This document shows positions 938-12,627 of a stretch of 28,692 nt of DNA, one piece after another. Position numbers and translations under genes: made by a program. A model generated the notes under the pieces. That model had not been told where the DNA came from. It saw only the letters and a program-made list of their open reading frames with translations, and searched no databases. The DNA lies in NCBI RefSeq assembly GCF_946481715.1, contig NZ_CAMLOV010000061.1, positions 1-28,692 on the forward strand, written 5' to 3'. The DNA is from an uncultured Mucilaginibacter sp. (GTDB taxonomy: Bacteria; Bacteroidota; Bacteroidia; Sphingobacteriales; Sphingobacteriaceae). Numbering within the stretch: position 1 is the stretch's first letter; every line of letters starts with the position of its first letter.

Positions 938-1165
938 ATGAACTTATTGGCAGAGAAAATTGAACTTGCGAAACGCTTGTTGGAAGTAGAGGACGAGCAG
1001 TTATTGATGCAAATTAAACAACTGTTTGATAATGATGGCAAAGACTTTTGGGATGATCTGCCTATTCATGTTCAACAAGGAATTGAGCGTGCGAAAAAGC
1101 AGGCTGCCGAAGGTAAGCTTACGCCCCATGACGAAGTAATGGCGAAGTACGAAAAGTACTTATGA
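938..1165 (+). CDS. Antitoxin of a RelE/ParE-type toxin-antitoxin module
   Basis: A 75-residue, mostly helical, charged protein beginning MNLLAEKIELAKRLLEVED. I chose the ATG at 938; the open frame extends upstream only to a TTG at 932. It has the size and layout of short addiction-module antitoxins of the kind paired with ParE/RelE toxins: an N-terminal helix, then a tail (KKQAAEGKLTPHDEVMAKYEKYL) that may wrap the toxin. The call rests mainly on its neighbour. Its stop TGA overlaps the toxin ATG in an ATGA junction (1162-1165), so the two are translationally coupled. I do not recognise a named DNA-binding fold. TAAATTTG at 927-934 resembles a -7 box but is only 3 nt from the ATG, which would imply a leaderless transcript. 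Confidence 0.8.
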   Translation: MNLLAEKIELAKRLLEVEDEQLLMQIKQLFDNDGKDFWDDLPIHVQQGIERAKKQAAEGKLTPHDEVMAKYEKYL

Positions 1166-1455
1166 TCAGATCTATCGAATGGTCGGATGAAGCGAAGGAA
1201 ACATTCGACGTTATAGTTTTGATCATTGAGGATAAATGGAGCACCAGGCAAGCAAGTGTTTTTATTAAAAGAGTTCGCAGAGTACTACAGATGATAGCCG
1301 TGCATCCCGATATGTACAAAGCCTCCATCTCTGGAGATGTGAGGCAGGCTGTTATTTCTAAACAAACTTCAATGTATTACAAAGTTGAGGAACGCTCCAT
1401 CATTGTTTTGTATTTTTGGGATAACAGGCAAGAACCGTTGTTTGAATTAAAATAG
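1162..1455 (+). CDS. RelE/ParE-family toxin
   Basis: A 97-residue protein with the layout of the RelE/ParE superfamily. It has an N-terminal beta strand (IEWSDEAKETFDVIVLIIEDKW), two helices with a basic stretch (FIKRVRRVLQMIAVHPDMYKAS), then the strands VRQAVISKQTSMYYKVEE and IIVLYFWDNRQEP. The central HPDMYKAS segment and the final FWDNRQ are typical of ParE-like proteins. Known members poison gyrase (ParE) or cleave mRNA at the ribosome (RelE), and sequence alone does not tell which applies here. It is translated from an ATG that overlaps the antitoxin stop. Its own stop codon (1453-1455) lies inside the left arm of the following terminator hairpin. Confidence 0.87.
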   Translation: MIRSIEWSDEAKETFDVIVLIIEDKWSTRQASVFIKRVRRVLQMIAVHPDMYKASISGDVRQAVISKQTSMYYKVEERSIIVLYFWDNRQEPLFELK

Positions 1456-6182: not shown

Positions 6183-6986
6183 TTATTTAACGCTTCGTTT
6201 TTGCACAATAAAATATCCTGCTACAAAAACCACTACGCCAACTATCAGGCTTACAAAAACATCTTTAGTAAATACATCGATGTTTATTGCTGGCGTTGCG
6301 TTTGTTTTGCCAAGCCCCATTTTAAACATGCTCATTAATGCAAGCATAGGGTGGTCGTAAGGGAAAAGGTAGCTATATTCCCAGTTTTTTGCTACGATAA
6401 GCCCCACAATGGTACAAATAAAGCCGATGCCCATTGGTTTTAAAAAGTCGCTCCAAAGCAAACTCATCAAAAATTGTAACGAAAGGATACCCAACGCAGA
6501 AAGGAACAGTTTAAAATAGATCTCAAAAAACTCCACTTCCATATGGTAAGTGTTAAACTTAAGCTCAGGTTTTAACACACTCAAAAAATTACCAAATGCA
6601 ATGGTCAATAATGCAAAAAGCATCATACATAAAAACACCAAAAATAAAGCATAAAAATATTTAGCAGCATATACCGACCAGCGGGAGATGGGTAAACTAA
6701 AAAGCGTTTTCCAGGTATCGGCTTTATGCTCAACGTTGTTTACAGAGTACGCCACAAATATTGCATACATAGGTAATAGCAACGAACCCATAATGCCCAG
6801 GGCAAAGCTGCCAAATTGTAGCCATAGGCCCATTCCGGCCATCCCGGTAAACTTTTCGCTTTTTAAGTAAACGCCAACGCTAACCAACAATGTAATTAAC
6901 AAGGGCAATATAATGGCACCCCAAAAACCGGGCGTTTTGCGGCTCTTGTAAAATTCCGACCGGAACGATAATATAAATCCCTTCAT
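6183..6986 (-). CDS. ABC-2 type transporter permease
   Basis: A 267-residue integral membrane protein with about six hydrophobic helices. It starts MKGFILSFRSEFYKSRKTPGFWG, typical of ABC-2 permeases of the bacitracin/lantibiotic-resistance type, where the first helix follows a basic F/Y-K-S-R-K segment. Later helices include FGSFALGIMGSLLLPMYAIF and DVFVSLIVGVVVFVAGYFIVQKR. It begins 6 bases after the ATPase gene stop and is the last gene of the operon. Together with the ATPase it should form an exporter or a flippase-like resistance pump. The substrate cannot be read from the sequence. Confidence 0.88.
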   Translation of the reverse strand: MKGFILSFRSEFYKSRKTPGFWGAIILPLLITLLVSVGVYLKSEKFTGMAGMGLWLQFGSFALGIMGSLLLPMYAIFVAYSVNNVEHKADTWKTLFSLPISRWSVYAAKYFYALFLVFLCMMLFALLTIAFGNFLSVLKPELKFNTYHMEVEFFEIYFKLFLSALGILSLQFLMSLLWSDFLKPMGIGFICTIVGLIVAKNWEYSYLFPYDHPMLALMSMFKMGLGKTNATPAINIDVFTKDVFVSLIVGVVVFVAGYFIVQKRSVK

Positions 6987-6992
6987 CTGTGG

Positions 6993-7892
6993 TTAATTGC
7001 TTTTGGTTATAGAGAGGAATAAATTCTCCAGGTCTTTATGCTGTTTGTTTATGGCAAATACCGTAATGCCGTTTTGGTTAAGCAGGGCATTTATTTCGCC
7101 CATTTGTTTTTTTGATATAAAGGGCACGGTAAGGTTCTCGTGATTGATATCGGTAACCGTGTAGTTGTTGCGTTTGAGCAGGTTTGCGGCATCCACAGTG
7201 TTATCTGTCTCTACATATACCTGCGGCTGGCTAATAGCCTCCAGGTCCTTTACGCTGCCCTGAAACAGCAATTCGCCATTATTAATGATGCCTACATGCG
7301 TGGCCATTTTTTCAATCTCGGCCAAAAGGTGGCTGCTGATAAATACGGTTTTATTATGGTCGCGCGTTAAACGCACCAACAGTTCACGAATCTCTATGAT
7401 GCCATTGGGGTCTAACCCGTTGGTGGGCTCATCAAGCACCAATAGTTTGGGGTCGCTCAATAAGGCGAGGGCTATACCCAGGCGTTGTTTCATGCCAAGG
7501 GAATATTGCCCGGCTTTTTTATGGGCGGCGTTGGTTAATTTAACCAGGCCCAGCATTTCATCAACCCGTGCGTCATTCACGCCAAGCAGCATAGCGCGGT
7601 TCAGCAGGTTTTCGCGGCCGCTCATGTGGGCATATATAGCGGGCTGCTCTATCAACGAGCCTATTTCAGATAATATAGCTATCCTATTAGTTTGTAATTC
7701 TTTCTCGAAAACAAAAATGCTGCCTTCGTCTGTTTTTAACAGGTTAAGCAGCATTTTTATGGTGGTGGTTTTCCCGGCACCGTTTGGGCCTAAAAACCCA
7801 TATATACTTCCTTCCGGAACTTGAAGCGATAATGATTTAACAACCTGCTGGCTGCCAAAGCTAAACGATAGTCCTTCGGTACGAATTACCAT
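6993..7892 (-). CDS. ABC transporter ATP-binding protein (BcrA/LanF type)
   Basis: A 299-residue ABC ATPase. It has Walker A GPNGAGKT (35-42), a Q-loop region around IEQPAIY, signature SLGMKQR (131-137; LSGGQ in the consensus), Walker B and D-loop LVLDEPTNGLDP (151-162) and the switch histidine in FISSHLL. The C-terminal 80 or so residues form the extra domain seen in BcrA-like ATPases, which power export of, or immunity to, peptide antibiotics in many species. Its ATG overlaps the end of the 70-residue upstream gene by 7 bases, suggesting coupled translation. Regulation by the divergent LytTR regulator is proposed from sites at 8161-8236. Confidence 0.94.
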   Translation of the reverse strand: MVIRTEGLSFSFGSQQVVKSLSLQVPEGSIYGFLGPNGAGKTTTIKMLLNLLKTDEGSIFVFEKELQTNRIAILSEIGSLIEQPAIYAHMSGRENLLNRAMLLGVNDARVDEMLGLVKLTNAAHKKAGQYSLGMKQRLGIALALLSDPKLLVLDEPTNGLDPNGIIEIRELLVRLTRDHNKTVFISSHLLAEIEKMATHVGIINNGELLFQGSVKDLEAISQPQVYVETDNTVDAANLLKRNNYTVTDINHENLTVPFISKKQMGEINALLNQNGITVFAINKQHKDLENLFLSITKSN

Positions 7893-8098
7893 ACGTTTTC
7901 CTGGGCAACAGATACAACAGTTTTTACTAAACCAAGCCCTTTTCCAAAAAGAGATTTAGCTTGTTTGGCCGATGCATGTGCAGATGCAAATTGTTCTGTT
8001 TTTTGTTCAAATTGGTAACTTACCCCCATTACAATGGCAAACAATACAGGTGCCAGTAATAAAATGAATGGATTTGAATTTGAAACTAACTTTTTCAT
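7886..8098 (-). CDS. Small single-span membrane protein, first gene of the ABC operon
   Basis: A 70-residue protein starting MKKLVSNSNPFILLLAPVLF. It has one hydrophobic segment (residues 10-27) followed by a polar, alanine- and lysine-rich helical tail (FASAHASAKQAKSLFGKGLG). I chose ATG 8098 because the frame upstream lacks sense as protein and crosses the regulatory region. The last codons are read in two frames: the stop TAA lies at 7886-7888 while the ATPase ATG is at 7892. I do not recognise a family. It could be a transporter accessory subunit or a signalling peptide. It is probably real, given the strict overlap with the ATPase start and the membrane topology. Confidence 0.7.
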   Translation of the reverse strand: MKKLVSNSNPFILLLAPVLFAIVMGVSYQFEQKTEQFASAHASAKQAKSLFGKGLGLVKTVVSVAQENVW

Positions 8099-8160
8099 TG
8101 TGTGTTGATTTTTGATAGAACAAAGAAATACTAAATAAACCGGTTGCAAAAAACATTTAG

Positions 8161-8236
8161 GCCAACGGGCTGCATTTGTAGATGAACGGCGTTTTACAGG
8201 CAATTGCCAGTTCATCGGTTATAAAAGCCAGTTCGT
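8161..8236. promoter_or_regulatory. Two divergent LytTR-type direct-repeat sites
   Basis: On the plus strand ccagttcat (8207-8215) and ccagttcgt (8228-8236) are separated by exactly 12 bp. On the minus strand gccgttcat (8190-8182) and cccgttggc (8169-8161) are also separated by exactly 12 bp. The published LytTR pattern is two 9-bp repeats [TA][AC][CA]GTTN[AG][TG] with a 12-13 bp spacer; the four repeats match at 8, 8, 8 and 7 of 9 positions. Each pair points toward the operon it would control. The assignment to the adjacent LytTR regulator is inference. Confidence 0.62.
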
Positions 8237-8289
8237 CGAAAAAAGCACCGGTGCACTGTAATTCAAAGGCTTTTTTAGCATCAAAACGC

Positions 8290-8297
8290 TACTTTAG
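8290..8297 (+). promoter_or_regulatory. Possible -7 box for the kinase-regulator operon
   Basis: TACTTTAG, 25 bases before the kinase ATG, differs by one base from the Bacteroidota -7 consensus TAnnTTTG and equals the box in front of the acyl-CoA dehydrogenase gene. There is no TTTG at the -33 position, as might be expected for an activator-dependent promoter. Confidence 0.4.
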
Positions 8298-8322: not shown

Positions 8323-9333
8323 ATGAAGAAAAGCTGGCAAATATTCTGGCATGTGTTTTTTTGGCTGAGCATGATCTCGTTCTTCATGTTCATCGTGTAC
8401 AGCGGCGGCAAAACCAGCCTGCAAAACCTCGTGGTAATATTTGTATTGTTTGGTGTGGTAAACATAGGTTTGTTTTACCTCAATTACCTAACGTTTATAC
8501 CCCGCTTTTTAGACAAGAAAAAATACTGGCAATACGCCGTTGCTGGCCTGGTCACCATGATTGCGGTTGGGTTGGCAAAATATGGGCTGGCCCTGCTGTT
8601 TAAGCACATTATACTGGTACGCGCGGGCAAACAGATCTCTTTTTGGGATTACGAGTTCAGTACGTTTTTTACCAGCCTTGTGTTTGTATTTTTGAGTACG
8701 GTTTACAGGTTTACGGTAGACTGGTTCCTGAACGAGCGGATACAGCGCGACCTGGAGAACCAGCGCCTCAGCGCCGAGCTATCCTTCCTAAAATCGCAGA
8801 TAAACCCGCATTTCCTGTTCAATTCGTTAAACAGTATCTATTCGCTCGCCTATCAAAAATCAGATACAACGCCAGAGGCCATCCTGAAACTATCAGAAAT
8901 TATGCGTTACATGCTTTACGAGTGTAACGATAATAAAGTAGAGTTAACCAAGGAGCTGCAATACCTGCAAAACTATATCGACCTGCAAAAGATCCGCTTT
9001 GGAAATAAGGCTTTCATTAATTTTGAAATAACGGGCGAGGTGACCAACCAGCTTGTAGTTCCCTTGCTGCTCATATCCTTTATCGAAAACGCATTTAAGC
9101 ATGGCGTAGCTAACGACCCCGCGGCGCCCATTGTGCTCAAAATAAACCTGAGCGACGGGCACCTTTACTTTTTTGTGCAGAATAAAAAACACACCCATAA
9201 CCGCGATGCATCGGGCGGTATTGGGCTTGTTAATGTTAAACGCCGGCTCGACCTGCTTTACCCCTCTAAATATAATTTAGAAATTCGCGACGAAACCGAT
9301 ACTTACACTGTACAATTATCCTTAGTTTTATAA
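8323..9333 (+). CDS. LytS/YehU-type membrane sensor histidine kinase
   Basis: A 336-residue kinase of the His_kinase (PF06580) class. Four predicted membrane helices fill residues 1-135. The phospho-acceptor region follows as LSFLKSQINPHFLFNSLNS, with H163 the expected phosphorylated residue. The ATPase domain shows the N-box ENAFKHGV and the G-box GGIGLVNVKRRL. There is no periplasmic sensor domain; the short loops suggest sensing within the membrane, as in antibiotic-responsive kinases of this class. It is 6 bases upstream of the LytTR regulator gene, its likely partner, and divergent from the ABC operon. Confidence 0.95.
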   Translation: MKKSWQIFWHVFFWLSMISFFMFIVYSGGKTSLQNLVVIFVLFGVVNIGLFYLNYLTFIPRFLDKKKYWQYAVAGLVTMIAVGLAKYGLALLFKHIILVRAGKQISFWDYEFSTFFTSLVFVFLSTVYRFTVDWFLNERIQRDLENQRLSAELSFLKSQINPHFLFNSLNSIYSLAYQKSDTTPEAILKLSEIMRYMLYECNDNKVELTKELQYLQNYIDLQKIRFGNKAFINFEITGEVTNQLVVPLLLISFIENAFKHGVANDPAAPIVLKINLSDGHLYFFVQNKKHTHNRDASGGIGLVNVKRRLDLLYPSKYNLEIRDETDTYTVQLSLVL

Positions 9334-9339
9334 CCAATC

Positions 9340-10065
9340 ATGATAAGATGCCTTGTAGTTGACGATGAGCCCCTGGCCCTCCACATACTGGAAGATTATA
9401 TCTCCAAAATACCTTTCCTAACGCTGGTAAAATCAACCACCAACCCTATCGAGGCGCTGACGCTGGTACAGGATGGCGGCATCGACCTGGTGTTTCTGGA
9501 TGTACAGATGCCCGAACTTACCGGCATCCAGTTCCTCAAAATATCAAACGGAAAGGCAAAGGTTATCCTTTGTACCGCTTACCCGCAATATGCGCTGGAA
9601 GGCTACGAACTGGATGTGATAGACTACCTGTTAAAACCCATCGCTTTCGACCGCTTTTTTAAATCGGTACAAAAAGCTCAAACCGTTATTGCCCCAACCG
9701 CTAAGCCCGTTACACCCGCCGAGCCCGTCAAACAGGATGATTTTATGAGCGATTTTATCTTTGTGAAAACCGAGCATAAAATACAAAAGGTTTACCTGCA
9801 CGATATTTTGTTTATAGAAGGGTTAAAGGATTACATTTCTATCTTCACCCCCGCCGAGCGCATTATTACTTTACAGGGTATGAAAAAAATGGAAGATGCC
9901 CTGCCCGAAAAATATTTTATGCGGGTACATAAATCCTATATCGTATCCATCAACAAGATAGACAGTATCGAACGTAGCCGCATTTTTATCGGCGATAAGG
10001 TTATCCCTGTGGGCGATACCTACCGCGAAGATTTCTTTAAAATAATTGACGGGAAGAATATATAG
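9340..10065 (+). CDS. LytTR-family response regulator
   Basis: A 241-residue two-domain regulator. The receiver domain (1-120) has the acidic DDE near the N-terminus (VVDDEP), the phosphorylatable aspartate in LVFLDVQMPELTG, the conserved threonine in ILCTAYPQYA and the lysine in YLLKPI. The LytTR DNA-binding domain (about 135-241) shows FIFVKTEHKIQKVYLHDILFIEG, KDYISIF, FMRVHKSYIVSINKID and IPVGDTYRE. It should be phosphorylated by the kinase 6 bases upstream and bind the repeats at 8161-8236, controlling its own operon and the ABC genes. The gene ends at a strong hairpin. Confidence 0.96.
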   Translation: MIRCLVVDDEPLALHILEDYISKIPFLTLVKSTTNPIEALTLVQDGGIDLVFLDVQMPELTGIQFLKISNGKAKVILCTAYPQYALEGYELDVIDYLLKPIAFDRFFKSVQKAQTVIAPTAKPVTPAEPVKQDDFMSDFIFVKTEHKIQKVYLHDILFIEGLKDYISIFTPAERIITLQGMKKMEDALPEKYFMRVHKSYIVSINKIDSIERSRIFIGDKVIPVGDTYREDFFKIIDGKNI

Positions 10066-10146: not shown

Positions 10147-11520
10147 TTAATTAAAGCTCACACCGGTGTAGCTGGCGTTTATAACAATTTTGTTTGCTGA
10201 GTTGTTGCTGCCTACATAACCCTTATAGGTTTTGGTAGATGACCAGCCGCGGTCCTCATCTGATGGCGATTTGGAGGTTACTTTTACCCTGTCGTCATCG
10301 TAATTAAAGTTACCAAACTTGGTAGTTACATCAAAGTTAAAGTTTTCCAGCTGTTTAAAATCAAAGTTGATTTTGGTGAACTGGGCGTCAACATTAATGT
10401 TCTTCACTGTTTTATCTATAGTGCCTATTCGGAAGCCGTCGCCATATTTTATATTCACATCTGCGGCACCTTTTAGTCTGTCGATGCTTATACCTCCAAA
10501 TTTGATATCCGCATCAATGTTGTTTATGCTTCCTACTTTTATTTTAGTGTATGCCACACTTATTTTTCCATTATTGCAAGAGGCCACTGATGAATTCCCG
10601 TCACCAAAACGCAGGTCTATTTCATTTTGCGAGTTTGAAAGTTGCCCGGCAGTTAAGTTGCCATAAGATACCTTGATGAAAGTTTTGCCAGACAGATCGG
10701 GCAGTATTACTGCGCCAAACCTGTTATTGATATCAATAGGGTTGCCGGCAGGCATGTACACTGTATAGTTGATCTCTATGCTTTGGTGGTTATTGCGGCG
10801 GTTTGATTCGCTGTGGAATAAGTTAGTTTTGAATGAAACTGTTGAGCCCACCTTGCTATCATCAACGCTCGAGCCGTTATACATATCGTTTACCGCGTCG
10901 GCATCATCCGAACCGAATTTCATTTGCACGTCAACCTTAAACTCGCTTTTATTCCAGGTGTTTACGGTTATTTTGCCAAAACTGTTGCTTATCTGTAGCA
11001 AATCATTGGCATCCACACTGTAGCTTTTGCTGTAGTTTTTTATCTTTTCGGTGATCTCGCCGCTGGCAACCTTTTGCTTGTATTCGGCGCTATCCGTTTT
11101 CCAGTTAACGTTGCCGTTAAGGTTTTTAAAACTGCTAAAGCTATCATTCATATCTGGCACCATGCCGCTAAAGCTGCCTGCAAAGTTTTTGCCGAAGTCC
11201 TTGAAATCTTTGCCGAAATCCTTGCCAAAGTCTTTAAATTTCATTTTAAATTCTTTGTTAAACTTTTTCGAGGCGATAACCATCTTCTGCACGCTTTTAT
11301 CCATCCGCAGTTTATTCATTTTTACCTGCAGCTTGCTCATTTCTTTTTGCAAGTCGCCCATTTGTTTCTGGAAGGCCTTGTCGTCAAGTTGTTCTGTCGG
11401 GGCATCCGGAGTTTGCGGTGCTGCGGGGGCAACAGGCTTTGCCTGTGCAAAAGCCGCGGTGCTGATGGCAATGCTTACAATTAATGCAAGCATCCTGTGG
11501 TTAAATATCTTTAGTTCCAT
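10147..11520 (-). CDS. Exported DUF4097-like beta-repeat protein
   Basis: A 457-residue protein with a signal peptide (to about AAFAQA, residue 27), a proline-rich linker, a coiled coil (about 45-90, QMGDLQKEMSKLQVKMNKL) and a striking basic tandem repeat DFGKDFGKDFKDFGKNF (97-113). From about residue 165 on come repeated short beta units ending in KFG, RFG or YG (NSFGKITVNTW, NRFGAVILPD, SYGNLTAG, KFGGISIDRL, KYGDGFRIG), as in DUF4097/DUF4098 beta-solenoid proteins. Role unknown; it is likely on the cell surface or in the periplasm. It overlaps the anti-sigma gene by 20 bases, so it is the third cistron of the sigma operon and perhaps an envelope-stress output or sensor. Confidence 0.82.
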   Translation of the reverse strand: MELKIFNHRMLALIVSIAISTAAFAQAKPVAPAAPQTPDAPTEQLDDKAFQKQMGDLQKEMSKLQVKMNKLRMDKSVQKMVIASKKFNKEFKMKFKDFGKDFGKDFKDFGKNFAGSFSGMVPDMNDSFSSFKNLNGNVNWKTDSAEYKQKVASGEITEKIKNYSKSYSVDANDLLQISNSFGKITVNTWNKSEFKVDVQMKFGSDDADAVNDMYNGSSVDDSKVGSTVSFKTNLFHSESNRRNNHQSIEINYTVYMPAGNPIDINNRFGAVILPDLSGKTFIKVSYGNLTAGQLSNSQNEIDLRFGDGNSSVASCNNGKISVAYTKIKVGSINNIDADIKFGGISIDRLKGAADVNIKYGDGFRIGTIDKTVKNINVDAQFTKINFDFKQLENFNFDVTTKFGNFNYDDDRVKVTSKSPSDEDRGWSSTKTYKGYVGSNNSANKIVINASYTGVSFN

Positions 11521-12070
11521 TTTGTTGTTCCTTTTTGCTTTGATTGAATTGTTGTATTACACTTAATTGCTGATTAAGCACCTCGGTTTGTATTTGCAAG
11601 TTCCGGATCATTGCACGTAGAACACGTTCCTGGTTAGGGCTGGTGGCCAAATCTGTACTTAGTTTTTTATAGTTTGCCTGCATTTTTACCAGTTCATTGT
11701 TAAACTCATTGTAAAGTTGCGGGTCGAATTTTGCTATTTGTTTTAATTCAACTCTTTTGGTTTCTATCAGCGATGCATACTGTGCCTGCTGTTTGGCATA
11801 AGTAGGGTTGATGGAGGCGAGGTCAACCTCGCCGCTTGTTTTTTGGTTTTGTGTGTATATACCGAAGCCGATGCCCATAACTACGATGATCATGGCGGCT
11901 ACCCTTAGCACGAAGCCAAGTGAGTAGGTTTTTGCTTCTCGCTTTTTTGGCGCTTCTGCCTCCCAGGCATCCAGTTCTTTTGAGATGTTATTCCAGATAT
12001 CGGCGCGGGGTTGCAGGTCGTCAAATTCTTCCCTGTTTTCTGCCATAAAATCTTCTAAACGCTTGCTCAT
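11501..12070 (-). CDS. Putative transmembrane anti-sigma factor
   Basis: A 189-residue protein. The cytoplasmic N-terminal part (MSKRLEDFMAENREEFDDLQPRADIWNNI) is acidic and of the kind that holds ECF sigma factors. One membrane helix follows at about residues 51-71 (LGFVLRVAAMIIVVMGIGFGIY). The periplasmic part (75-180) is a long helical region (QYASLIETKRVELKQIAKFD and on). There is no HxxxCxxC zinc motif, so it is not a ZAS-type anti-sigma. Its ATG overlaps the sigma factor stop as ATGA (12067-12070), and its end overlaps the next gene by 20 bases. Function is inferred from this coupling and topology. Confidence 0.82.
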   Translation of the reverse strand: MSKRLEDFMAENREEFDDLQPRADIWNNISKELDAWEAEAPKKREAKTYSLGFVLRVAAMIIVVMGIGFGIYTQNQKTSGEVDLASINPTYAKQQAQYASLIETKRVELKQIAKFDPQLYNEFNNELVKMQANYKKLSTDLATSPNQERVLRAMIRNLQIQTEVLNQQLSVIQQFNQSKKEQQNGTKDI

Positions 12071-12627
12071 TTTGTTATTCCTTTGCTAATTAGTATCTCG
12101 TTCAACTTTCTTTTCGCTCTTAAAAACTGGGTGCGCGATGTATTTTCGTTTATCCCCAGTACCTGGCCAATTTCTTCGTGGTCGTACCCCTCTAATAAGT
12201 AAAGCGATAATACCACCCGGTAGCCATCCGGCAATTCTTTCATGGCCTCTTTTATTTGTGCCACTTTATATTGAATATCCTCATCGTCCCAGGGCTCCTC
12301 GTCAGCAACATTATCCAGGTGCCCGTCTTCTATCTCCACCAGGTCCAGCTTGCGTTTGCGCAGCAGGTTTATAGCACGGTGTACCACTATTTGTTTTAGC
12401 CAGAGCCCAAAGGTTGTTTCCTGCCTAAAATCTTTCAGCCGGTTAAAAGCATCGGTAAAAGCCTCCTGTAAAACATCTTCCGCTTCGCCAACGTTGCCCA
12501 CAATCCTAAAGGCAATGTTCAGCATCGCTTTAGAATATAGTTTGTACAACTCATAGCAGGCTTTTTTGCTTCCCTGCTTACACTCAACCACCAGTTGATA
12601 ATGTTTATCTACAAATACCGCTTCCAA
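12067..12627 (-). CDS. ECF-type RNA polymerase sigma factor
   Basis: A 186-residue sigma factor with region 2 (about 20-88: YELYKLYSKAMLNIAFRIVGN, then EAEDVLQEAFTDAFNRL and FGLWLKQIVVHRAINLLRK) and region 4 (about 125-178: AMKELPDGYRVVLSLYLLEGYDHEEIGQVLGIN, a helix-turn-helix). An acidic linker (DGHLDNVADEEPWDDED) joins them. The start is the TTG at 12627: the codon just before it is an in-frame TAA, and the next ATG is residue 35, inside region 2. It heads a three-gene overlapping operon with its putative anti-sigma factor and is probably autoregulated from the promoter at 12653-12679. Confidence 0.94.
   Translation of the reverse strand: MEAVFVDKHYQLVVECKQGSKKACYELYKLYSKAMLNIAFRIVGNVGEAEDVLQEAFTDAFNRLKDFRQETTFGLWLKQIVVHRAINLLRKRKLDLVEIEDGHLDNVADEEPWDDEDIQYKVAQIKEAMKELPDGYRVVLSLYLLEGYDHEEIGQVLGINENTSRTQFLRAKRKLNEILISKGITK

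What the first reader, a model, noticed from the sequence alone, without database searches (positions are those of the whole stretch)
8161..8236. Two divergent LytTR recognition pairs point at an autoregulated ABC-transporter circuit
Between the ABC operon (minus) and the LytS/LytTR operon (plus), ccagttcat and ccagttcgt lie on the plus strand with a 12-bp spacer, and gccgttcat and cccgttggc lie on the minus strand with a 12-bp spacer. The known LytTR pattern is two 9-mers [TA][AC][CA]GTTN[AG][TG] with 12-13 bp between. Sequence and spacing agree on both strands, and each pair faces one operon. I infer that the LytTR regulator controls both its own operon and the exporter.
Basis: partly seen in the sequence, partly recalled or inferred. 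Interest (0 to 1): 0.72.

Follow-up and report, generated by a model that had tools for sequence, protein, structure and literature searches.

The report
LytTR switch for tiny membrane protein
Between two back-to-back gene groups lie four copies of a binding site for a common kind of bacterial switch protein; they are kept widely in one bacterial family and probably control first of all a tiny unnamed membrane protein, with the exporter next to it as an optional extra.

Summary
In detail: direct-repeat pairs at 8161-8190 (minus) and 8207-8236 (plus), each with a 12-bp spacer. Alone they prove little: no half-site fits the strict LytTR consensus, and that pattern with two mismatches is at chance level in the window. 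Comparison makes them real. In 80 aligned intergenic regions the plus pair is gap-free in 80, the minus pair in 79; all four GTT cores are intact in 68. A strict pattern occurs once per genome, here, in 15 of 15 genomes.

The interpretation needs correcting. The gene facing the minus pair is a 70-aa membrane protein (7886-8098), kept where the ABC genes are lost. The minus pair and its exact 38-nt distance to a -7-like box stay with this gene in 24 of 25 further loci, three of them far from kinase and regulator; four other relatives of the gene lack it. Autoregulation is likely but less sure. Six other family genomes carry such a pair upstream of a DUF2807 (Toastrack) gene. I read an envelope-stress type LytS/LytTR circuit. 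No binding or expression was measured.

The parts
8161..8190 (-). LytTR-type direct-repeat pair reading toward the small gene (GCCGTTCAT-N12-CCCGTTGGC)
   Evidence: Sequence; gap-free in 79 of 80 rows; proximal half-site kept at the exact 38-nt distance from a -7-like box in 24 of 25 further loci
8207..8236 (+). LytTR-type direct-repeat pair reading toward the kinase gene (CCAGTTCAT-N12-CCAGTTCGT)
   Evidence: Sequence; gap-free in 80 of 80 rows; strict pattern once per genome in 15 of 15 genomes, in this intergenic region (14 times the plus pair, in L012's genome the minus pair)
8121..8128 (-). Candidate -7 box of the small-gene promoter (window TTTCTTTG; TnnnTTTG in 76 of 80 rows)
   Evidence: Exactly 38 nt from the proximal half-site core in 80 of 80 rows. 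The Bacteroidota form TAnnTTTG is recalled, so the promoter assignment is inference
8146..8152 (-). Candidate -33 element; TTTTAGC in 52 of 80 rows (window itself TTTTTGC)
   Evidence: Conserved block, 19 nt from the -7 box; inference
8290..8297 (+). Candidate -7 box of the kinase promoter (TAnnTT[AT]G in 65 of 80 rows)
   Evidence: inference
8252..8261 (+). Place of a conserved CTATATATAA-type block in the 21-bp register of a third half-site (8210, 8231, 8252); the window itself is divergent here
   Evidence: meaning unknown
7886..8098 (-). Small gene: 70-aa protein with one membrane-type segment, no known family; first gene of the divergent operon
   Evidence: Found in 79 of 79 loci whose contig reaches it (L009 cut inside it); no Pfam or NCBIfam match; median dN/dS about 0.22
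6993..7892 (-). ABC ATPase, start codon overlaps the stop of the small gene (ATGGTAA)
   Evidence: PF00005; closest NCBIfam TIGR03740 lantibiotic protection ATPase, below cut-off; overlap in 71 of 79 readable rows, with a GTG start in four of them
6183..6986 (-). ABC-2 type permease
   Evidence: PF12730; MutE/EpiE model far below cut-off
8323..9333 (+). Membrane histidine kinase of the His_kinase (LytS/YpdA) kind
   Evidence: PF06580
9340..10065 (+). Response regulator with LytTR DNA-binding domain; F-x-R-x-H-[KR]-S in 95 of 95 aligned regulators
   Evidence: PF00072 + PF04397; alignment

Best explanation
The 76-bp region 8161-8236 is a shared control region of a LytS/LytTR two-component system. 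The phosphorylated LytTR regulator (9340-10065) most likely binds each direct-repeat pair as a dimer. The minus pair, centred about 61 bp upstream of the inferred start site, activates the operon small membrane protein - ABC ATPase - permease. The plus pair probably activates the kinase/regulator operon (autoregulation), though it may also help the small gene. The constant output is the small membrane protein; the lantibiotic-immunity-like ABC exporter is an optional second output, its start codon overlapping the end of the small gene. The circuit probably answers membrane or envelope stress. Shown: site sequence, spacing, conservation, gene order, linkage of the array to the small gene, paired sites before a Toastrack gene in six related genomes. 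Inferred: binding by this regulator, activation rather than repression, the signal, the function of the small protein.
For: Footprint in 80 rows with rigid spacing and more variable spacers. Strict pattern once per genome at the home site in 15 of 15 genomes chosen from the 80 loci, reversed control 0. Array beside LytS/LytTR genes with a conserved LytTR domain. Small-gene geometry (-7-like box, 38 nt, half-site) in 80 of 80 rows and 24 of 25 further loci, against 33 of 4600 mononucleotide shuffles. In three genomes the small gene is unlinked from kinase/regulator yet keeps this geometry, and the genome holds a 69-71% identical regulator elsewhere. A pattern search not centred on the locus, in 151 Sphingobacteriaceae genomes, gave 36 matches (reversed control 2): 24 within 300 bp of a small gene, 6 upstream of DUF2807-type genes, 6 others or unexamined. 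The -61 geometry resembles AgrA, repeats centred near -60 (PMC4227749, passages).
Against: No binding or expression data. The window misses the strict consensus and departs from the lineage consensus at 8161 and in the -33 and 8252 blocks. In 12 of 80 rows at least one GTT core is altered. Many rows are close relatives, so counts are not independent. The first, narrower box pattern found the geometry in only 10 of 17 loci; 16 of these 17 came after I loosened it. Four small-gene relatives without the kinase/regulator beside them (L121, L122, L123, L159) lack the geometry; their three genomes have only 44-59% identical regulators. The plus pair is usually 59 nt, not 38 nt, from the kinase -7-like box. 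In the three unlinked genomes the gene beyond the array is a LacI-type gene in the same direction as the small gene, so the plus pair kept in two of them points into a gene end. LytTR paralogs were not excluded as the binder.
Confidence: 0.75

Rival explanations
1. Both pairs serve only the small gene (upstream activating array or looping), and the kinase/regulator operon is not autoregulated.
For: In two of three genomes where the small gene is unlinked, both pairs stay with it although the plus pair then points into the 3' end of a LacI-type gene that runs in the same direction as the small gene. A pair search found none upstream of the relocated kinases.
Against: The plus pair reads toward the kinase and is gap-free in 80 of 80 rows. 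In 10 of 16 divergent loci the last half-site lies 35-40 nt from a loosely defined -7-like box on the kinase side. By eye, relocated kinases keep degenerate repeats with a 21-bp period (sequence).
Confidence: 0.33
2. Another LytTR paralog or another regulator of the genome, not the neighbour, binds the array.
For: Related genomes hold several LytTR regulators, e.g. five relatives at E<=1e-50 in G174; specificity was not tested.
Against: The array is next to this kinase/regulator in nearly all of the 80 loci (selected by the kinase; regulator further off or not seen in a few), and 16 of 20 loci fetched by the small gene have both beside it; genomes with an unlinked array hold a 69-71% identical regulator. 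The strict site is unique in 15 of 15 genomes.
Confidence: 0.12
3. The repeats are chance matches or a conserved promoter with no LytTR role.
For: In the window alone the loosened consensus is at chance level; the whole intergenic region is fairly conserved (mean 1.06 bits).
Against: Cores conserved above spacers, rigid 21-bp period on both strands, persistence in loci with 44-55% kinase identity and at unlinked small genes.
Confidence: 0.03
4. The small protein is a peptide signal or bacteriocin precursor exported by the ABC transporter, making this a quorum-sensing locus like sil.
For: Divergent LytTR-controlled ABC transporter and peptides exist in the streptococcal sil region (PMC2766830, passages). 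The ABC genes resemble lantibiotic immunity ABCs.
Against: The small gene is kept in genomes without an ABC relative at E<=1e-60, is conserved along its membrane segment and C-terminal part, and by eye shows no leader or processing site.
Confidence: 0.06

Closest known systems
agr P2-P3 intergenic region of Staphylococcus aureus with AgrA (PMC4227749, passages seen)
   Same: LytTR regulator, two promoters in one intergenic region, each with its own direct repeats; repeats centred near -60
   Different: The divergent output here is a small membrane protein with an optional ABC exporter; other site sequence; Bacteroidota; no pheromone system looked for or seen
sil locus of group A streptococcus with SilA (PMC2766830, passages seen)
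   Same: LytTR regulator, repeat pairs at divergent promoters, one of an ABC transporter; exact spacing essential there
   Different: 10-bp repeats with 11-bp spacer there; bacteriocin-type transporter and peptides there
NatK-NatR / natAB of Bacillus subtilis (recalled; the paper was not in the library listing)
   Same: LytTR two-component system with an ABC-2 type ATPase and permease
   Different: Here a conserved small membrane protein is first in the operon and outlives the ABC genes; membership not tested
YpdA/YpdB of Escherichia coli (PMC4847170, passages seen)
   Same: LytS-type kinase with LytTR regulator; direct repeats; general range of 9-11 nt repeats and 11-13 nt spacers stated there
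   Different: Other motif (GGCATTTCAT) and target gene
Lia/PSP-type envelope stress systems with Toastrack proteins (PMC11237479, passages seen)
   Same: Toastrack (DUF2807) gene with a paired site in six related genomes; LytTR with Toastrack is noted there for Firmicutes operons
   Different: PspA, PspC and LiaFSR genes were not searched for here; the regulator is of the LytTR kind

Membership tests
LytTR response regulators | Receiver domain plus LytTR DNA-binding domain above Pfam cut-offs | tested here: met
   PF00072 63.4 bits (cut-off 30.2), PF04397 64.4 bits (cut-off 22.6)
LytTR response regulators | FhRhHRS-type motif | tested here: met
   FMRVHKS in the window; F193, R195, H197, S199 in 95 of 95 aligned regulators; motif as given in PMC4227749
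LytTR binding sites | Two repeats of 9-11 nt with 11-13 nt spacer | tested here: met
   Both pairs, 12-nt spacer; ungapped in 80 and 79 of 80 rows; range from PMC4847170
LytTR binding sites | Strict 9-mer consensus [TA][AC][CA]GTTN[AG][TG] | tested here: not met
   0 of 4 half-sites in the window; 5, 20, 5, 1 of 80 rows. PMC4847170 states that LytTR sites share no common consensus, so this does not exclude
LytTR binding sites | Regulator binds the DNA | not testable with these tools
   Needs footprint or EMSA
Lantibiotic-immunity ABC transporters | NCBIfam model above curated cut-off | tested here: not met
   TIGR03740 248 bits against 309.75; TIGR03732 29 against 145: a relative, not shown to be a member
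NatKR-NatAB type circuit | LytTR regulator controls the ABC genes | not testable with these tools
   Operon layout only
MgrB-like small-protein feedback on a kinase | Small single-pass protein induced by the system and acting on the kinase | tested here: inconclusive
   Size and one membrane-type segment fit; model has two long helices at low confidence (pLDDT 66); site upstream fits; kinase contact not testable
Toastrack/Lia envelope stress systems | Toastrack gene under the same regulator | tested here: inconclusive
   Paired site upstream of DUF2807-type genes in 6 genomes; 0 of 20 Mucilaginibacter DUF2807 loci have one, but those proteins are distant (30-44% identity over the listed matches), so orthology is unsure

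The most novel reading that the evidence does not exclude
The 70-aa protein is a dedicated small-protein regulator of the LytS-type kinase, made by the very regulator that the kinase drives: an MgrB-like feedback loop in Bacteroidota that tunes an envelope-stress response whose effectors (lantibiotic-type ABC exporter, Toastrack protein) come and go between lineages while kinase, regulator and small protein stay.
Probability: 0.25. Interest if true: 0.7.

Novelty: new variant of a known kind. Interest (0 to 1): 0.5.

Why it matters
LytS/LytTR pairs are frequent in Bacteroidota (recalled), but my searches of open-licence papers listed none whose title or abstract start describes a binding site for one there (2 papers, of which passages of one were seen; 0; 0; 1, listing only). 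This locus gives an exactly spaced site and promoter geometry that can be tested in a laboratory strain, a pattern for genome searches, and a conserved small membrane protein whose most constant partner is the two-component system. It would give an entry point to the signal and regulon of such a switch.

Tried and rejected
Rejected: the ABC exporter as primary target (missing or broken in 9 of 80 loci with the array kept). Rejected: an upstream start of the small gene at 8215, which would run through the minus pair; the conserved protein starts at 8098. The peptide-signal reading is unlikely (see rivals). The sliding-template test of conservation is weak: the true register is the best of 121 (1.77 bits) but neighbouring shifts reach 1.65, since the whole region is conserved. 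Sigma-70 and terminator scans gave nothing above shuffles; Rfam gave one chance-level match. Regulator residues of the Mucilaginibacter-type and the other rows were only tabulated; differences are confounded with ancestry and not used. A PDB sequence search with the regulator listed 60 of 87 sequences, all matched in the receiver part, and adds nothing on the LytTR part. The model of the small protein has mean pLDDT 66, so no fold search was run. With one mismatch allowed the genus-wide pattern gives many chance-like extras (list cut by the tool). This favours the first rival, which I moved from 0.25 to 0.33, and lowers the best explanation from 0.80 to 0.75. I also added L160, L161 and L159 to the geometry test.

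Full report
The finding. The four 9-mers are at the stated places, with a 12-bp spacer in each pair: minus pair 8161-8190, plus pair 8207-8236. The window is Mucilaginibacter-like: its closest kinase match is 89% identical, in Mucilaginibacter gilvus. As single-sequence evidence the claim is thin. None of the four half-sites meets the strict consensus quoted, and that consensus with up to two mismatches matches 9 times in the window against 6.8 expected. Patterns fitted to the site after seeing it do better.

Footprint. A scan with the kinase found 124 relatives and kept the best 80, of which 74 are titled Mucilaginibacter, 5 Bacteroidetes bacterium and 1 Sphingobacteriaceae bacterium. In 79 of the 80 the contig reaches the small divergent gene (L026 is cut by its contig end). 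I aligned the intergenic regions of the window and these 79. The plus pair has 30 ungapped bases in 80 of 80 rows and the minus pair in 79 of 80; the 16 bases between the pairs vary in length in 13 rows. Core positions average 1.77 bits, the spacers 0.83 (0.66 without the conserved extension of the half-sites). All four GTT cores are intact in 68 of 80; 12 rows have at least one altered. Median pairwise identity of the regions is 0.63. The pattern CNGTTYRTCK-N11-CNGTTYRTCK occurs exactly once in each of 15 genomes that I chose from the 80 loci, always inside this intergenic region (in L012's genome it is the minus pair), with no reversed-control match. With one mismatch allowed, 97 of 100 genus genomes match; beyond the home pairs the extras look like chance (list cut by the tool).

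The divergent gene. The gene that the minus pair faces encodes 70 aa (7886-8098), with one membrane-type segment and no Pfam or NCBIfam match. A search of 5.8 billion proteins found 633 relatives at E<=1e-3; of the 120 listed, none carries a Pfam domain, and names where given are hypothetical, uncharacterized or, from one source, CcdA. Its stop overlaps the ATPase start (ATGGTAA) in 71 of 79 readable rows, with GTG as start in four of these. In 9 of 80 loci the ATPase is missing, broken or truncated (L011, L019, L047, L048, L050, L052, L067, L079, L080) while the small gene is intact. No ATPase relative at E<=1e-60 was found in 14 of 14 genomes without a local intact ABC: these nine and those of L124, L125, L126, L134, L140; 9 of 9 control genomes gave a match. 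The small gene is under purifying selection (median dN/dS 0.22 over 804 pairs among 79 sequences, pairs not independent), also in the ABC-free pairs L048-L050 (pS 0.36, pN 0.04) and L079-L080 (pS 0.20, pN 0.03).

Depth. A profile of the small protein matched 165 of 301 Sphingobacteriaceae genomes at E<=1e-3, many weakly. A profile of the more divergent members matched 8 of 295 genomes of the class, all of them genomes also drawn in the family search. The search misses some: G123 had no match with the first profile but has a real copy (L158). Of 20 divergent loci fetched, 16 have the small gene divergent from kinase and regulator: 9 of these with ABC genes, 6 without a match (L124, L125, L126, L129, L134, L140), and L131 too close to its contig end to tell. 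L121-L123 have a small-gene relative without kinase, regulator or pairs; L128 is unlinked. The genera of these genomes are not told.

Geometry. In the 80 rows the distance from the proximal minus half-site core to the TnnnTTTG box position is always 38 nt (the box itself fits in 76). For other loci, a first narrow box pattern found the geometry in 10 of 17. With a looser pattern, CAAAnnnn - 38 nt - A[CT][CT]AA[GCA], it is present in 24 of 25 (17 of the 20 fetched loci plus L158, L160, L161, L168, L169, L171-L173; exception L137), and in 33 of 4600 mononucleotide shuffles. Several of these loci are near-identical relatives. The four small-gene relatives left out of that count because no kinase/regulator lies beside them and their upstream differs (L121, L122, L123, L159) have it in 0 of 4. 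With a start site about 7 nt below the box the pair is centred near -61, as for AgrA (near -60; PMC4227749, passages). On the kinase side a TAnnTT[AT]G box is present in 65 of 80 rows, and its position is 59 nt (38 + 21) from the second plus half-site in 61 rows; a conserved CTATAT-type block stands in the 21-bp register between them. Box names rest on recalled Bacteroidota promoters.

Natural experiments. In G133, G149 and G174 the small gene lies apart from kinase and regulator, behind a LacI-type gene (Pfam-tested in L168; alike by eye in the others) that runs in the same direction. The geometry and the minus pair are kept in all three, with a weakened distal half-site in L169 (ACTAAA); the plus pair is kept in two, where it points into the end of the LacI-type gene (in L168 it overlaps that gene's last codons). 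Kinase and regulator (regulator 69-71% identical to the window's) lie elsewhere, behind a gene that reads as acetate kinase (name recalled, not searched). The pair search found no pair upstream of these kinases; by eye each has a degenerate repeat with a 21-bp period.

Second target. The pattern GTTSRTMGA-N12-GTTSRTMGA in 151 family genomes gave 36 matches in 35 genomes, reversed control 2. By coordinates or by reading the loci, 24 lie within 300 bp of a small gene (two of them unlinked ones) and 6 lie about 119-145 bp upstream of a DUF2807-type gene (Pfam-tested in L163 and L164; the other four alike by eye). Of the other 6, two were read and lie elsewhere (G108, in a coding region; G162), three were judged by sequence only (G177, nearly the same as G108; one each in G001 and G013, repeat-like), and G212 has the same letters as the home match of G221 but was not examined. 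DUF2807 belongs to the Toastrack group, linked with envelope stress and in Firmicutes with some LytTR operons (PMC11237479, passages). The six genomes also hold the regulator ortholog (67-70% in five, 66% in one) and three of them a second relative at 51-57%. None of 20 Mucilaginibacter DUF2807 loci (one per genome held, distant relatives) has such a pair, so this target is lineage-specific if real.

Reading. The best account is a LytS/LytTR circuit in which the regulator activates the small-protein operon and probably its own operon. The most constant part is kinase, regulator, small protein and paired sites; the lantibiotic-immunity-like ABC (below the family cut-offs) and the Toastrack gene are variable outputs. 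This suggests an envelope-stress role. The boldest reading not excluded is that the small protein feeds back on the kinase as MgrB does on PhoQ (MgrB papers seen as a search listing with abstract starts). Binding, activation, signal and feedback are all unmeasured.

Noticed in passing
L162-L167 (unnamed Sphingobacteriaceae genomes): A paired GTTGGTCGA-type site upstream of a DUF2807-type (Toastrack) gene, followed in L167 by a gene with a 4HB_MCP_1 domain, in six genomes that also hold the orthologous regulator: a probable second target in trans.
   Followed up: yes
window 10147-11520 (-), 11501-12070 (-), 12067-12627 (-): 457-aa protein with weak, below-cut-off similarity to LiaX, next to a protein with a marginal anti-sigma match and a sigma-70-type (ECF-like) factor; a relative of the 457-aa protein lies beside the kinase/regulator operon in 2 of the 80 loci as fetched (L004, L071).
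   Followed up: partly
window 7886-7892: Stop of the small gene and start of the ATPase overlap (ATGGTAA), which fixes the last residue as Trp; the Trp stays even in loci without the ABC genes.
   Followed up: yes
L195, L196, L157: In three genomes kinase and regulator sit directly behind a gene that looks like acetate kinase (by eye), a possible link between acetyl-phosphate metabolism and the regulator.
   Followed up: partly
L016, L020, L054, L065, L066: Kinase and regulator genes are separated: about 210 nt in L016, a 444-aa ORF in L020 and L054, other genes in L065 and L066 (a regulator relative 4.6 kb further on in L066, none in the stretch held for L065).
   Followed up: partly
L121-L123, L159: Small-gene relatives without the kinase/regulator beside them and without the pairs; upstream of those in L121-L123 is a different short repeat (TTTACCGA type).
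   Followed up: partly
window 8252-8261: Place of a CTATATATAA-type block, conserved in relatives, in the 21-bp register of a third plus half-site; meaning unknown.
   Followed up: partly
window 1162-1455 (+): 97-aa ORF that looks like a ParE/RelE-type toxin by eye; not tested.
   Followed up: no
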